Assembly (NCBI RefSeq): GCF_025961205.1
Contig: NZ_JAOQNH010000001.1
Span: 768,001 to 832,000, forward strand
Source of the DNA: Azospirillum fermentarium
Lineage (GTDB): Bacteria; Pseudomonadota; Alphaproteobacteria; Azospirillales; Azospirillaceae
Length of the DNA stretch: 64,000 nt
Direction: 5' to 3'
Below are positions 42,650-62,735 of this stretch, piece by piece. The number at the start of each line of letters is the position of its first letter. Position 1 is the first letter of the stretch. The translations under genes were made by a program, and so were the position numbers. Below the pieces are notes generated by a model that did no database searches, was not told where the DNA came from, and was given only the letters and a program-made list of their open reading frames with translations.

Positions 42650-44842
42650 ATGACCGCTGTGCCGATGCCGCATTTTCCCTGTTCCGATCCGCCGCCGCTG
42701 TTCGTGCCGGGAGAGACCTGCTGGCGGGTGGAGCGGGCGGAGCGGGTGGGGGTCATCATCGACGCCGAGGATTATTTCGCCGTCGCCAAGGCCGCCATGC
42801 AGCGCGCCCGCCGGTCGATCCTGCTGACCGCGTGGGATTACGACAGCCGTGTGCGCCTGACCCCGCAGAAGCGCCACCCCAGCCGGCCCGACCGGCTGGG
42901 GCTGTTCCTGAACTGGCTGGCGGCGCGGCGGCCCGGCCTGCACATCTATGTGCTGAAGTGGGATTACGCCGAGCTGTTCGACATCAAGCGCTACCAGCAG
43001 CCGCTGTTCATCCGCCGGCTGTTCAGCCATCCGCACCTGCATTACCGGCTGGACGACGATCATCCCACGGGTGCCTGCCATCACCAGAAGCTGCTGATCA
43101 TCGACGACGCGCTGGCGTTCTGCGGCGGGCTGGACCTGACCGCCAACCGTTGGGACACCCGCGCCCACCGGGCCGACGAACCGGCCCGCCGCCAGCCCGA
43201 CGGCTCGTGCTACGAGCCGTTCCACGACCTGATGATGGCGGTGGACGGGGATGCGGCCCGCGCGCTGGGCGACCTGTTCCGCGAACGCTGGCGCCGCGCC
43301 ACGGGGGAGGTGCTGGACCCGGCCCCGCCCGGTCCCGGCATCGATCCCTGGCCCGCCACCCTGAAACCGCTGCTGACCCGCCAGGACATCGCCATCGCCC
43401 GCACCGAACCCGCCGTCAACGGGCGGGAGGAGGTGCGGGAGGTGGAGGCGCTCTACCGCGCCGCCATCGCGTCGGCCCGCCGCACCATCTATCTGGAAAG
43501 CCAGTATTTCGCCTGTGACGCCGTGGCCCAGGCGCTGAAGGCCCGGCTGGAGGAGCCGGACGGGCCGGAGGTGGTGGTGGTCAACCCCATCCGCACGTCG
43601 AGCTGGCTGGAAAACCAGGTGATGATCGGCGCCCGCAACCGGCTGACGACCATGCTGCGCAACGCCGACCGCTCTGGGCGTTTCCGCATCCTGGCCGCGG
43701 TGACCGACGGCGGGCGCTGCATCACCGTCCACGCCAAGGTGATGATCGTTGACGACCGGGTGCTGCGCATCGGCTCGGCCAATCTCAACAACCGTTCCAT
43801 GGGGCTGGACAGCGAATGCGATCTGGCGCTGGAGGCGGCCCCCGGCGACCATGCCACCGCCGCCGCCATCCGTGCCGTGCGCGACGATCTGGTGGCCGAG
43901 CATCTGGGGGTGGCGCCCGATGTGGTGACCCGTGCCATGGCGGACAACGGCGGCTCGCTGATCCGGGCCATCGACGCCCTGCGTTCCACCGGCACCGAAG
44001 GCCGGACTCTGGTGGATCTGGAATCGCCCGAACCCACGCCGTTCGCTGCCGCCCTGCTGGACGCCCGGTTCCTCGACCCCGAACGGCCGGTCACGGCGGC
44101 GGAACTGGTGGACCGGGTGCTGCCCTCGCTGATCCCCGGACGGCTGCACCACTGGCTGGGCGGGCTGGCGCTGGCGGCGGCGGCGGTGGGCTTGTACCTG
44201 CTGTGGAACACCACGGCGCTGAAGGAGTGGGCCACGCTCGACACCGCGCTGGGGCTGATCGAGCAGGTGCGGGCCATGCCGCTGGGGCCGCTGGCGCTGG
44301 TGGGGGTTTATGTGGCGGCGGGCTTCGTCGCCTTTCCCCTGCTGCTGCTGGTGGCGGCCACGGCCATGGCGCTGGGGCCGGTGGAGGGGTTCGCGGTCGC
44401 CATGGGCGGGGCGGTGGCGTCGGCGGCCGCCCTGTTCCTGGCCGGGCGGCTGGCGGGGCGCCGGCTGCTGGAACGGCTGGCCGGGCCCGGCCTGCACAAA
44501 CTCTCCCGCCGGCTGGCGGACAGCGGTATCGTCGCCGTGGCCACCATCCGGGTGGTGCCGGTGGCCCCCTTCACCGTGGTCAATCTTGTGGCGGGGGCCT
44601 CCCCCATCCGGTTCTGGGACTATGTGATCGGAACGGTGTTGGGATTGGCGCCGGGCACCCTGGCATTCAGCCTGCTGGGACACCAGTTGGAGAGCACCAT
44701 CACCAACCCCACGCCGTCCGGCATCGCCCTGTCGGCGGGGCTGGCGGTGGTGGCCGTCGGGCTGGGCTGGGGGGCGGGCCGGTTGGTGAACCGGCTGCGG
44801 AACAAAGGGCCGTCTGCGGAACAGGAGGAACAAGCGCCGTGA
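42650..44842 (+). CDS. Phospholipase D-like protein fused to VTT (DedA/SNARE-associated) membrane domain
   Basis: 730 aa. Two HKD motifs: HHQKLLIIDD (~145) and VHAKVMIVDD (~364), so a complete PLD active site that should transfer phosphatidyl groups (cardiolipin-synthase-like). The C-terminal third has about six hydrophobic segments with the VTT signature region VAATAMALGPVEGFAVAMGG and RVVPVAPFTVVNLVAGASPI. Its stop overlaps the next start (GTGA), and an EEP-family protein follows, a recurrent pair. The combined function in phospholipid remodelling is inferred. Confidence 0.9.
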   Translation: MTAVPMPHFPCSDPPPLFVPGETCWRVERAERVGVIIDAEDYFAVAKAAMQRARRSILLTAWDYDSRVRLTPQKRHPSRPDRLGLFLNWLAARRPGLHIYVLKWDYAELFDIKRYQQPLFIRRLFSHPHLHYRLDDDHPTGACHHQKLLIIDDALAFCGGLDLTANRWDTRAHRADEPARRQPDGSCYEPFHDLMMAVDGDAARALGDLFRERWRRATGEVLDPAPPGPGIDPWPATLKPLLTRQDIAIARTEPAVNGREEVREVEALYRAAIASARRTIYLESQYFACDAVAQALKARLEEPDGPEVVVVNPIRTSSWLENQVMIGARNRLTTMLRNADRSGRFRILAAVTDGGRCITVHAKVMIVDDRVLRIGSANLNNRSMGLDSECDLALEAAPGDHATAAAIRAVRDDLVAEHLGVAPDVVTRAMADNGGSLIRAIDALRSTGTEGRTLVDLESPEPTPFAAALLDARFLDPERPVTAAELVDRVLPSLIPGRLHHWLGGLALAAAAVGLYLLWNTTALKEWATLDTALGLIEQVRAMPLGPLALVGVYVAAGFVAFPLLLLVAATAMALGPVEGFAVAMGGAVASAAALFLAGRLAGRRLLERLAGPGLHKLSRRLADSGIVAVATIRVVPVAPFTVVNLVAGASPIRFWDYVIGTVLGLAPGTLAFSLLGHQLESTITNPTPSGIALSAGLAVVAVGLGWGAGRLVNRLRNKGPSAEQEEQAP

Positions 44843-57355: not shown

Positions 57356-58102
57356 ATGCTGCGTTTCGCCCTCAGCCGCTGCGCCGGCCTGATCCTGCCG
57401 CTGTTGCTGCTGGCGGTGATGGTGCTGGCCCTTGCCCCCGACCCCGGTGCCGCCGCCGCCCGCGCGCTGGGCGCGCTGCCGCGCACCGCCGGGCTGGTGG
57501 CGCTGGTGCTGGCGCTGGGCTACGGCGTCGGCGTGCCGCTGGGGCTGGCCGCGGCCATGCCCGCCGGGGGGCCGGTGCCGTCCCGTCTGCTGGGCGGGGC
57601 CGGGCGGGCGCTGGCGGCGGTGTCGGGCGGGGTGCCGGGGTTCCTGGCGGTGGCCGCGGCGGTGGCGCTGGCCGGTGGGGCCGGTGCCGCACCGCACGTG
57701 CCGGCGGCGGCCCTGGCGCTGGCGCTGGCCCCGTTGACCGAGGCGGCGCGGCTGGCGCGCAACGCCCTGGCGGCCCAGGCCGGTGCCGGCTTCGTGCTGG
57801 CCGCCCGCAGCCGCGGGATGGATGAGCGCACGGTCCTGGCCCTTTATGCCCGTCCGCCGGCGGCGGCGGCGGCGCTGGCATCGCTGGGGCCGGTGGGGGC
57901 CGCCGTCCTGTGCGGTGCGGTGGCGGCGGAGGTTCTGTTCGGCCTGCCGGGCTGCGGGGCGGTGCTGGTGGGGGCGCTGCACGGGGGTGACGGGGGCACG
58001 GCGGTGGCGGCGTTTGCCGCCCTGGCGGCGCTGGCCCTGCTGCTGCATGTGGGGGGGGCCGTGGCCGCGGCCCGGTTCGATCCCCGGCGGCTCGTGCCAT
58101 AG
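57356..58102 (+). CDS. Peptide-type ABC transporter permease (DppB-like), Ala/Gly-rich
   Basis: 248 aa with about six hydrophobic helices. The cytoplasmic coupling loop is recognisable as VLAARSRGMDERTVLALYAR (EAA-like region, Gly in place). The family usually has ~310-340 aa, and the large periplasmic N-terminal part is missing or reduced. Sequence is extremely rich in Ala, Gly and Leu. First of three genes with the second permease and fused ATPase; no substrate-binding protein is beside it. Confidence 0.75.
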   Translation: MLRFALSRCAGLILPLLLLAVMVLALAPDPGAAAARALGALPRTAGLVALVLALGYGVGVPLGLAAAMPAGGPVPSRLLGGAGRALAAVSGGVPGFLAVAAAVALAGGAGAAPHVPAAALALALAPLTEAARLARNALAAQAGAGFVLAARSRGMDERTVLALYARPPAAAAALASLGPVGAAVLCGAVAAEVLFGLPGCGAVLVGALHGGDGGTAVAAFAALAALALLLHVGGAVAAARFDPRRLVP

Positions 58103-58153: not shown

Positions 58154-59002
58154 ATGGACGGTCTTGCCGGTGACGGATTCGGGGTGCCCCCCTGGCGGGC
58201 GGCGTGGCGGGGGTTCCGCGCCAGCCGGGCCGGGGTGCATGGGCTGGGGGCGCTGGCGGCGGTGTGCTGCGGCGGCCTGCTGGAGCCGGTGCTGAGCGCC
58301 GGTGCCCCGACGGCCGGCGGCGTGGGCGATGCGGTGGTGACGGCGCTGGACGCGGTGGCCGCCTCCCTTCTTCTCGGGCTGGCGGCGGCGGTGCTGGCGG
58401 CGGTGGCGGCGCTGCTGTGGGGCGGCGGGGCCGCGCTGGCCGGCGGGCGGGGGATGCGGCTGGTCACCCTGGCCGGCTTTCTGGGGGCGCTGCCCCTGCC
58501 GTTGCTGCCGCTGATGGCCGGCGGGCTTCTGGATGCCGATCTTCTGCTGTTCACCGTGGTTCTCGGGCTGGCGGCGGCCCCGGTGCCGGCGCTGGCGGTC
58601 CATGGGGTGACGGCCGCCGCCCTGCGGTCGGACATGGCGGCGGCGGCCCAGGCCGCGGGGCTGTCCCGCGGGGCGCTGCTGGGGCGCCGGGTGCTGCCGG
58701 CGGTGGCGGTGCCGCTGCTGGCGGCGTGCTGGGGGGCGTGGCCCCGCGCGCTGGCCATGGAGGGCTTCGCCGGGCTGGTCCACCTCGGCCCCGTCCGCGG
58801 CGCGGGCGAGGCGGCGACATGGGGGTCGCTGCTGGGGGACGCGGTGGCCGGCGGCGGGCCGCTGGACCTGCTGGGGCCGGGGCTGCTGCTGGCGGTGACC
58901 CTGTGGGCGCTGGGCGCCATCGGCGAGGGGCTGGCCCACGCCGCCGCCGCGGCGGTGCCCGGCGTCTCCCTGTCCGCGGCGGGCCGGCGGGAGGGGCCAT
59001 GA
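58154..59002 (+). CDS. Peptide-type ABC transporter permease (DppC-like), Ala/Gly-rich
   Basis: 282 aa. Hydrophobic helices with a coupling loop AAQAAGLSRGALLGRRVLPA (~175). GLLEPVLSAGAPTAGGVGDA near the start parallels the DppC N-terminus. Composition is Ala/Gly/Leu-rich as in its partner. The stop overlaps the ATPase start (ATGA). It probably pairs with the previous permease. Confidence 0.75.
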   Translation: MDGLAGDGFGVPPWRAAWRGFRASRAGVHGLGALAAVCCGGLLEPVLSAGAPTAGGVGDAVVTALDAVAASLLLGLAAAVLAAVAALLWGGGAALAGGRGMRLVTLAGFLGALPLPLLPLMAGGLLDADLLLFTVVLGLAAAPVPALAVHGVTAAALRSDMAAAAQAAGLSRGALLGRRVLPAVAVPLLAACWGAWPRALAMEGFAGLVHLGPVRGAGEAATWGSLLGDAVAGGGPLDLLGPGLLLAVTLWALGAIGEGLAHAAAAAVPGVSLSAAGRREGP

Positions 59003-60702
59003 CCGACGTGATGACCGCCCTTTCCTCTCCCTATCACCGGATCTTGACCGCCGAGGGGCTGGGGCTGCACCGCCGCCGGGGCGGGGGCCGGGGGGATGAG
59101 ACCCTGCTGTCCGCCGCACACCTGACCCTGGACGCGGCGGAGGTGGTGGCCGTGACCGGCGACGAGGGCGCGGGCAAGACCCTTCTGCTCCGCGCCCTGT
59201 GCGGCCTGCTGCCGCCGGGGGTGGAGCGCACGGGCACGGTCGCCCTGACCGAACGGGTGGTGCTGGTGCCGGCGGGCGGCGGCCTGCTGCCGGGAGAGAC
59301 GGTGGGGGAGCAGTTCGCCGCCGCGCTGTCCGCCGTCGGCCTTGGCCGCGGGGCGGCGCTGCGGCGGGCCGAACGGCTGCTGGCCCGGATGCATGCGGCC
59401 GACCCCGCCCGCCTTCTGTCCCTCCATCCCCACCAGATGGGGGAGGGGAACCGCTGGCGCGTGGCGCTGGCGCTGGGCATGGCGGCGCTCAACGGCGGCA
59501 CGGGCACCGAACGGACGGGCGGGCTGTTCCTGGCCGACGCGCCGGGGGCCGGGCTTGACCCCACGGTGCGGGCGCGGCTGCTGCATCTGCTGGCCGATTG
59601 GGTGCGGGAAACCGGGGCGGCGGCGCTGCTGGCGGGCCGGGCCGGCGACGGGCTGGACGGTCCCGCCGACCGGCTGCTGGCGCTGTCCGCCGCCACCCTC
59701 GGCCCGGCACCGGAGCGGGAGGAGGCCACCGCCGCTCCCGCCCCGTCCGCCGGGGCGCCGGTGCTGTCGGTGCGCGGCCTGCGGGTGGCGGTTCCCCTGA
59801 CCCGCGGCGGCGGCGGCCCGCTGGTGGTGACCGACGCCGGCTTCGACGTGGGGCGGGGGGAGACGCTGGCCCTGGTGGGCGAAAGCGGCAGCGGCAAGGC
59901 CGTGCTGCTGCGCGCCCTGGCCCGGCTGATGCCGGCGGCGGCGGGGCGGGCGTTGTGGATGGGCCACGATCTGCTGACCCTGGACGACGGTGCGCTGCGG
60001 GCGGTGCGCGGCGACGTGCAGATGCTGTTTCCCGATCCGCGCACCGCGCTTGCGCCGGCGCTTGCGCTGGGGGCACAGATGGTGGAGGCGCTGGCGGCGC
60101 TCCAGCCCGGCTTCACCCCGGCGGAACAGGCATCGCGGGTGGCGGCGGCGCTGGAGCTGGCGGGGCTGCCGCTGGCCGCCACCGGCTATTACCCCGGACG
60201 CCTGCCCGCGGAACTGGCGGCGGCGGCCGGGCTGGCCCGCGCGCTGGTCACCGGGCCGCGGCTGCTGCTGGCCGACGAGCCCTTCGCCGGCCTCGACGGC
60301 GGCGGGCGGGAACGGTTCCTGGAACGGCTGCTGCGGGTGCAGCAGGCGCGGTCCCTGACGCTGGTGGTGGCGACGGCGGACGCGGACGCCGCCTGCCGGC
60401 TGGCGCACCGGGTGCTGGTGATGCTGAACGGCCGGGTGGTGGAGGAGGCGGACACCGCCGATCTGGTGCGCGACCCGCGCCATCCCTATACCCGCGCCCT
60501 GCTGGCGGCGGCGGAGGGGCACCGGCCCGCGCTGGACGGGGATCCGCCCGGCCTGTTCGCCGTGCCGTCGGGCTGCCCGTTGCGGCGGCGCTGTCCGCGG
60601 GTGCGCGATTTCTGCGCCCAGGCGGTGCCCGAGCCGGAGCCGGTGCGCCCCGGCCACCGCGTCGCCTGCCATTATTGGGACGTGGGGGGGGAGGGGGCCT
60701 GA
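58999..60702 (+). CDS. Fused double ABC ATPase with degenerate motifs
   Basis: 567 aa, two ABC ATPase domains in one chain, as in DppD-DppF fusions, plus a Cys-rich C-terminus (CPLRRRCPRVRDFC). NBD1 (~25-245): Walker A GDEGAGKT is normal, but signature LSGGQ is replaced (HQMGEGNRWRV), Walker B lacks the catalytic Glu (FLADAPGAGLD) and no H-loop His is seen. NBD2 (~255-515): Walker A ends GKA instead of GKS/T, the Q-loop is LFPDP rather than FQDP, signature is YPGRLPAELAAAAG, Walker B LLLADEPFAGLD is intact, and the H-loop has ATAD for SHD. ATP turnover is doubtful. ATG at 58999 overlaps the permease stop. Confidence 0.85.
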   Translation: MTDVMTALSSPYHRILTAEGLGLHRRRGGGRGDETLLSAAHLTLDAAEVVAVTGDEGAGKTLLLRALCGLLPPGVERTGTVALTERVVLVPAGGGLLPGETVGEQFAAALSAVGLGRGAALRRAERLLARMHAADPARLLSLHPHQMGEGNRWRVALALGMAALNGGTGTERTGGLFLADAPGAGLDPTVRARLLHLLADWVRETGAAALLAGRAGDGLDGPADRLLALSAATLGPAPEREEATAAPAPSAGAPVLSVRGLRVAVPLTRGGGGPLVVTDAGFDVGRGETLALVGESGSGKAVLLRALARLMPAAAGRALWMGHDLLTLDDGALRAVRGDVQMLFPDPRTALAPALALGAQMVEALAALQPGFTPAEQASRVAAALELAGLPLAATGYYPGRLPAELAAAAGLARALVTGPRLLLADEPFAGLDGGGRERFLERLLRVQQARSLTLVVATADADAACRLAHRVLVMLNGRVVEEADTADLVRDPRHPYTRALLAAAEGHRPALDGDPPGLFAVPSGCPLRRRCPRVRDFCAQAVPEPEPVRPGHRVACHYWDVGGEGA

Positions 60703-60866
60703 TAAAGCCCCAGCGCAATGGTGCGTTGAAAAAAGGCGTCAGTCTTTTTACTGGGACCAAATGCCGCACAGACGTGGTGCGGCTGGCACCGTTCCCGGCC
60801 TCTGCTACAAACGAACCTCCCTTGTGCTAAACTCTTCCTCCTCCTTGATCCGTGAGCCATCGTGCC

Positions 60867-62735
<1,869 letters not shown>

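What the first reader, a model, noticed from the sequence alone, without database searches (positions are those of the whole stretch)
58999..60702. Double ABC ATPase that has lost most catalytic residues yet keeps an intact frame
NBD1 lacks the catalytic Glu, LSGGQ and H-loop. NBD2 lacks the Walker A Ser/Thr, the Q-loop Gln, LSGGQ and the H-loop. The operon with two permeases is otherwise tight (ATGA overlap) and has no binding protein. Either it is decaying without stops yet, or it has a non-transport, ATP-binding role.
Basis: partly seen in the sequence, partly recalled or inferred. Interest (0 to 1): 0.6.

Follow-up and report, generated by a model that had tools for sequence, protein, structure and literature searches.

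The report
Conserved catalytically dead peptide-transporter-like ABC complex
Soil bacteria of the genus Azospirillum keep a membrane complex descended from a peptide importer whose two ATP-burning engine parts have both lost their catalytic residues, and the same losses are fixed across the genus, which suggests a retained job other than pumping.

Summary
In detail: 58999-60702 encodes a fused double ABC ATPase missing catalytic Glu, signature and H-loop in NBD1, and Walker A Ser, Q-loop Gln, signature and H-loop in NBD2. It is not a one-genome accident. 41 of 45 Azospirillum genomes carry it full length, 3 more carry pieces at contig ends, and the last genome's contig breaks at the expected site. 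The replacements are fixed across 41 sequences: Glu to Ala/Ser 41/41, NBD1 His to Arg 41/41, NBD2 Gln to Pro 41/41, NBD2 His absent 41/41. P-loop lysines, Walker B Asp and four [4Fe-4S]-type cysteines are kept. NBD1 descends from a DppD-type and NBD2 from a DppF-type ATPase; permease B has lost the SBP-contacting periplasmic segment. Frames are intact and within-clade dN/dS is 0.23-0.30, so it is not an ordinary pseudogene. Against this, it evolves much faster than canonical Dpp in the same genomes and has drifted strongly towards Gly/Ala/Arg/Pro. Best reading: a Dpp/Opp-derived, assembled, non-hydrolytic membrane complex used as scaffold or regulator rather than pump. Slow genus-wide relict decay is the main rival. 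Function is inferred, not shown.

The parts
57356..58102 (+). Permease B (248 aa), OppB/NikB-like, lacking the periplasmic segment between TM1 and TM2
   Evidence: Pfam BPD_transp_1 48 bits; profile vs solved E. coli OppB aligns 1-26 and 91-304 only; model with TM1 2-26 running straight into helix 30-67
58154..59002 (+). Permease C (282 aa), OppC-like
   Evidence: profile of 16 genus members vs solved E. coli OppC E=7.2e-41; NCBIfam OppC 40.7 bits, below its cut-off 433
58999..60702 (+). Fused double ABC ATPase, both NBDs catalytically degenerate (567 aa)
59158..59181 (+). NBD1 Walker A GDEGAGKT (aa 54-61), kept
   Evidence: K60 in 40/41
59437..59451 (+). NBD1 signature position, MGEGN in place of LSGGM/Q (aa 147-151)
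59527..59544 (+). NBD1 Walker B FLADAP (aa 177-182), catalytic Glu replaced by Ala181
   Evidence: A39 S2 of 41; canonical E24/24
59638..59640 (+). NBD1 H-loop position, Arg214
   Evidence: R41/41; canonical H24/24
59878..59901 (+). NBD2 Walker A GESGSGKA (aa 294-301), Ser/Thr replaced by Ala301
   Evidence: K300 41/41; position 301 A25 S16; position 299 G25 A16
60031..60033 (+). NBD2 Q-loop position, Pro345
   Evidence: P41/41; canonical Q24/24
60202..60216 (+). NBD2 signature position, LPAEL (aa 402-406)
   Evidence: SGGQ lost throughout; canonical SGGQ 24/24
60265..60282 (+). NBD2 Walker B LLADEP (aa 423-428), catalytic Glu427 kept
   Evidence: E40 D1 of 41
60376..60378 (+). NBD2 H-loop position, Ala460
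   Evidence: Q17 E15 D7 A2 of 41, no His; canonical H24/24
60574..60669 (+). C-terminal oligo_HPY region with Cys526, 532, 539, 557, spacing 6-7-18
   Evidence: 41/41 Cys; E. coli DppD [4Fe-4S] ligands C284/290/297/315 have the same spacing (PMC12136057)

Best explanation
The three genes encode a membrane complex descended from a Dpp/Opp-type peptide importer. In or before the ancestor of Azospirillum a DppD-type and a DppF-type ATPase were fused, the binding-protein gene and the DppB-type scoop segment were lost, and the ATP-hydrolysis machinery of both NBDs was replaced by fixed non-catalytic residues. What was kept is what a translocon needs to fold and assemble: NBD folds, P-loop Lys and Walker B Asp, the C-terminal cysteine set that in E. 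coli Dpp holds an assembly-critical [4Fe-4S] cluster, and coupling-helix motifs in most members. It therefore most likely works as an assembled but non-hydrolytic, Fe-S-stabilised pseudo-ABC complex, a scaffold or regulatory/sensing platform (or passive conduit) in the inner membrane, not an ATP-driven importer. Shown here: descent, fixed motif loss, gene arrangement, retained cysteines, intact frames. Inferred: absence of ATPase activity, assembly, cluster binding, and the scaffold/regulatory role.
For: Orthologue in 44 of 45 genus genomes (41 full length, 3 pieces at contig ends, gene pieces). Fixed replacements in 41 sequences against 24 canonical D and 24 canonical F proteins: E181 to A39/S2, H214 to R41, Q345 to P41, no His at 460. 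14 'switched' positions conserved at 95% or more in both groups but different, including W153, A181, R214, P345. Four Cys 41/41, same spacing as E. coli DppD cluster ligands whose mutation disassembles DppBCDF (PMC12136057 passages). OppB residues 27-90 have only about 15 counterparts in permease B. dN/dS 0.298, 0.233, 0.264 in three clades (29 of 41 sequences). Confident two-NBD model, pLDDT 89.5, pTM 0.90, best solved match M. tuberculosis OppD.
Against: Much faster evolution than canonical Dpp: 48-66% against 83-96% identity in the same six genome pairs. Uncorrected between-clade dN/dS 0.42-0.95 against 0.04-0.27 (dS probably near saturation, third positions being about 92% GC, so probably inflated). 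GARP content 0.46-0.52 (medians) against 0.25-0.42 in canonical relatives, a mark of GC-driven drift. NBD1 lacks the A-loop aromatic, and NBD2 Walker A is damaged in more than half of members, so even nucleotide binding is uncertain. One member (L036) has lost the NBD1 P-loop Lys. Partner genes are not constant.
Confidence: 0.6

Rival explanations
1. Relict: a fused Dpp operon that lost its function early in the genus and is drifting slowly, with frames still open because GC-rich sequence has few stop codons and time has been short within each clade.
For: Strong GARP drift, between-clade uncorrected dN/dS up to 0.95 for permease C in pairs with this genome, 48-66% identity against 83-96% for canonical Dpp, several signature positions among the fast sites.
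Against: Intact frames in all 41 full-length copies over roughly 50% protein divergence; 44 of 45 genomes; within-clade dN/dS 0.23-0.30; 54 NBD positions conserved identically with canonical proteins, including four Cys; newly fixed residues R214, P345, W153; confident fold.
Confidence: 0.22
2. Still an active but unusual ATP-driven transporter: NBD2 keeps the catalytic Glu and P-loop Lys, and hydrolysis runs without signature and H-loop residues, perhaps as an SBP-independent transporter.
For: E427 40/41, K300 41/41, D426 41/41; 16 of 41 keep Walker A Ser.
Against: Q-loop Gln absent 41/41 and H-loop His absent 41/41 in the NBD that keeps Glu; the facing signature in NBD1 is lost. E. [quoted passage not shown]
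Confidence: 0.08
3. An ATP-independent channel or lipid/envelope-related conduit, functionally tied to the divergent PLD-VTT and Exo_endo_phos genes next door.
For: PLD-VTT and EEP homologues lie divergently upstream in 32 of 40 fetched loci; a MscS-type gene follows in 12 of 40; in the window the PLD-VTT gene lies 12.5 kb upstream.
Against: Neighbours may be plain synteny; in 8 of 40 loci they were not found and in the window they are not adjacent; no direct evidence for a pore.
Confidence: 0.1

Closest known systems
M. tuberculosis OppABCD (OppD, Rv1281c; PDB 8j5q/8j5r/8j5s)
   Same: Two permeases plus a single fused double-NBD ATPase with one Cys-rich Fe-S-type domain; best solved match by profile (E 1.1e-107) and by fold (Foldseek E 6.2e-38).
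   Different: OppD keeps a Q-loop Gln, signature, DEP and H-loop His in the stretches aligned and has the SBP OppA; its Cys-rich domain follows its first NBD, here it follows the second.
E. coli DppBCDF/DppA (PMC12136057; PDB 8z1v-8z1z)
   Same: NBD1 groups with D-type, NBD2 with F-type ATPases (tree); same cysteine spacing; related permeases.
   Different: Dpp has separate D and F, a scoop motif in DppB, an SBP, and SBP-activated ATPase (passages); all absent or replaced here.
Canonical Dpp-type operons of Azospirillum and sister genera (L159-L168, L186-L200)
   Same: Same gene order permease B, permease C, D, F in sister genera; identity to the L033 orthologue 32-37% for D to NBD1 and 40-46% for F to NBD2.
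   Different: Canonical residues in 24/24 D and 24/24 F for P-loop Lys, catalytic Glu, signature Gly-Gly and H-loop His.
ABC exporters with one degenerate site (e.g. TM287/288, ABCB11; listings and abstracts seen)
   Same: Loss of catalytic Glu and other site residues fixed by evolution.
   Different: Those keep one consensus site (in part recalled); here neither composite site has a signature, a His switch or a full set of catalytic residues.

Membership tests
Functional Dpp/Opp-type peptide ABC importer | Two BPD-type permeases | tested here: met
   Permease B BPD_transp_1 above cut-off; permease C by profile to OppC E 7.2e-41, though below Pfam/NCBIfam cut-offs singly
Functional Dpp/Opp-type peptide ABC importer | Two NBDs with Walker A, Q-loop, LSGGQ, catalytic Glu and H-loop | tested here: not met
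   41 of 41 sequences fail in both NBDs (H-loop His absent in both)
Functional Dpp/Opp-type peptide ABC importer | C-terminal oligo_HPY/Fe-S cysteine set | tested here: met
   oligo_HPY 46 bits; four Cys 41/41; the cluster itself is not testable
Functional Dpp/Opp-type peptide ABC importer | Linked SBP (SBP_bac_5) | tested here: not met
   none of 10 genome hits in the window; upstream ORFs of six relatives read by eye hold none; divergent PLD-VTT in 32 of 40. An unlinked SBP is not excluded
Functional Dpp/Opp-type peptide ABC importer | Periplasmic scoop segment of DppB/OppB | tested here: not met
   profile alignment skips OppB 27-90; model
Functional Dpp/Opp-type peptide ABC importer | SBP-stimulated ATPase and peptide uptake | not testable with these tools
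   needs bench work
NCBIfam DppD/OppF/GsiA equivalogs | Score above curated cut-off | tested here: not met
   best 183.6 bits against 541; GsiA 169 against 1077
ABC transporters with one degenerate site | One consensus composite ATP site | tested here: not met
   both signatures and both H-loop His absent

The most novel reading that the evidence does not exclude
A genus-wide 'pseudo-ABC importer': a peptide-importer translocon with both ATP sites disabled by fixed substitutions, held together by an Fe-S domain and used as a redox- or nucleotide-responsive membrane scaffold or signalling platform rather than a pump.
Probability: 0.4. Interest if true: 0.75.

Novelty: new variant of a known kind. 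Interest (0 to 1): 0.55.

Why it matters
ABC importers are treated as ATP-driven by definition. A whole genus of plant-associated bacteria keeping an importer-derived complex with both catalytic sites removed gives a natural test of what the ABC architecture can do without hydrolysis, and warns that its automatic annotation ('oligopeptide/dipeptide ABC transporter ATP-binding protein') is probably functionally wrong.

Tried and rejected
Ordinary single-genome pseudogene: rejected by presence and intact frames across the genus. Sequencing or frame artefact: rejected, same replacements in 40 other genomes. Orthologues outside the genus: family/order search (82 genomes) and a class sample (385 genomes) gave none; the only two hits outside the genus in the class sample (G318, G085) have canonical motifs when read. 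Partner by conserved neighbourhood: histidine kinase homologue downstream in 19 of 40, MscS in 12 of 40, PLD-VTT and EEP upstream in 32 of 40, trpS in 0 of 40, so no constant partner. Some of the 19 kinase hits cover only part of the protein and may be other kinases. Of the 40 loci, L062 ends before the permeases, L065 is a short contig end, and the L070 ATPase start was corrected. Permease B of L035 is doubtful (29.6 bits).

Literature: searches in the open-access library listed no report of this system or of a bacterial importer with both sites degenerate; most subscription papers are not held, so this is weak. One paper, PMC12136057, was read, as passages only. The tree was built with one 19-residue fragment (L190_D_5762) that fell inside the NBD2 group, so no support is claimed for NBD2 monophyly; that fragment and two fused proteins (L199, L200) were dropped.

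Full report
Observation. Pfam finds two ABC_tran stretches and an oligo_HPY tail.

Who carries it. Plasmid records give the genus: three Azospirillum plasmids match, and one, A. ramasamyi NZ_CP029833.1, has the same length and match position as handle G027 contig 5. Of 45 genomes of the genus (the window's own included), 41 have a full-length orthologue, G011, G006 and G030 have it in pieces at contig ends, and G019 shows neither ATPase nor permease. In G019 the contig ends 12 bases beyond the neighbouring PLD-VTT match, just where the operon is expected, so a gap is as likely as a loss. In the other 12 genera of the family only ordinary Dpp/Opp-type matches of much lower score appear (at most 344.5 bits against 708-907 for the 42 best in the genus). 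A sample of 385 genomes of the class gave two hits outside the genus above the limit, both canonical when read.

Fixed degeneration. I aligned the window protein and 40 relatives. NBD1: P-loop Lys 40/41, Walker B Asp 41/41, catalytic Glu to Ala 39 or Ser 2, H-loop His to Arg 41/41, signature lost and variable, Q-loop Gln kept in 36/41 (lost in the window). NBD2: P-loop Lys 41/41, the Gly before it Ala in 16, Ser/Thr after it Ala in 25, Q-loop Gln to Pro 41/41, Glu kept 40/41, H-loop His absent 41/41, signature lost. So neither composite site has a signature or a His switch. 14 positions are conserved at 95% or more in both canonical and degenerate groups with different residues (8 in NBD1, 6 in NBD2), while 54 are conserved and identical (19 + 35).

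Origin. In ten of eleven loci fetched from sister genera the best matches sit in operons ordered permease B, permease C, D, F (nine of the ten with a permease B hit); the eleventh, L169, holds a fused ATPase matching at 32%. A tree puts NBD1 inside the D group (its 14 sampled members form a clade, support 1.0) and NBD2 beside the F group, both on long branches. Fusion of D and F is therefore inferred. Canonical Dpp-type operons also exist in Azospirillum, including this genome.

What was kept and lost. Cys526, 532, 539 and 557 are present in 41/41, with the 6-7-18 spacing of the [4Fe-4S] ligands of E. coli DppD; in E. coli, Cys-to-Ser changes or oxidation break up DppBCDF (PMC12136057, passages read). 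Permease B aligns with OppB 1-26 and 91-304 only, and its model runs from TM1 straight into the next helix; the missing part is where the scoop motif contacts the binding protein in Dpp (passages). No SBP gene is linked. In 33 of the 39 relatives where permease C could be read, its stop overlaps the ATPase start by 4 bases as in the window (the start choice favoured such overlaps). Coupling-helix motifs of the permeases are conserved in most members but eroded in the window's own copies. The ATPase model is confident (pLDDT 89.5, pTM 0.90), closest to M. tuberculosis OppD and DppD.

Selection. Within three clades (29 of 41 sequences; pairs are not independent) median dN/dS is 0.298, 0.233 and 0.264 for the ATPase, close to some neighbours (PLD-VTT 0.20-0.31, kinase 0.25-0.29) and above others (EEP 0.02-0.22, MscS 0.15). 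Results against function: in six pairs among four genomes the ATPase is 48-66% identical where canonical D and F are 83-96%; uncorrected dN/dS is 0.42-0.76 for the ATPase and 0.45-0.95 for permease C against 0.04-0.27 for canonical D/F, though saturation probably inflates this. Median Gly+Ala+Arg+Pro content is 0.46 (ATPase), 0.52 and 0.51 (permeases) against 0.37 for canonical ATPases and 0.25-0.38 (range) for canonical permeases of the genus. I read this as weak but real constraint with strong GC-driven drift.

Mechanism. The parts kept are those of folding and assembly; those lost are for substrate delivery and hydrolysis. I commit to a non-hydrolytic, Fe-S-stabilised membrane scaffold or regulatory complex (about 0.6 for the whole statement; the absence of pumping is firmer than the scaffold role). 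Slow relict decay stands at about 0.22. No step of the function is shown here; a bench ATPase and pull-down test would decide.

Noticed in passing
window 42650-44842 (+), with an Exo_endo_phos-like reading frame after it (to about 45699): The PLD-VTT and endonuclease/exonuclease/phosphatase pair that in 32 of 40 relatives lies divergently next to the degenerate operon is here 12.5 kb upstream and on the same strand, pointing to a local rearrangement; trpS now lies next to the operon.
   Followed up: partly
window 60852-62735 (+): PAS/HisKA/HATPase histidine kinase directly downstream; homologues follow the operon in 19 of 40 relatives.
   Followed up: partly
L036:10110-11747: One relative has also lost the NBD1 P-loop lysine, so even nucleotide binding in NBD1 is not universal.
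   Followed up: no
L153 and L154 (A. lipoferum AZO_p4, A. ramasamyi plasmid unnamed3): The operon sits on large plasmids in some species and on the largest contig in others, so it or the replicons have been rearranged with its neighbours.
   Followed up: no
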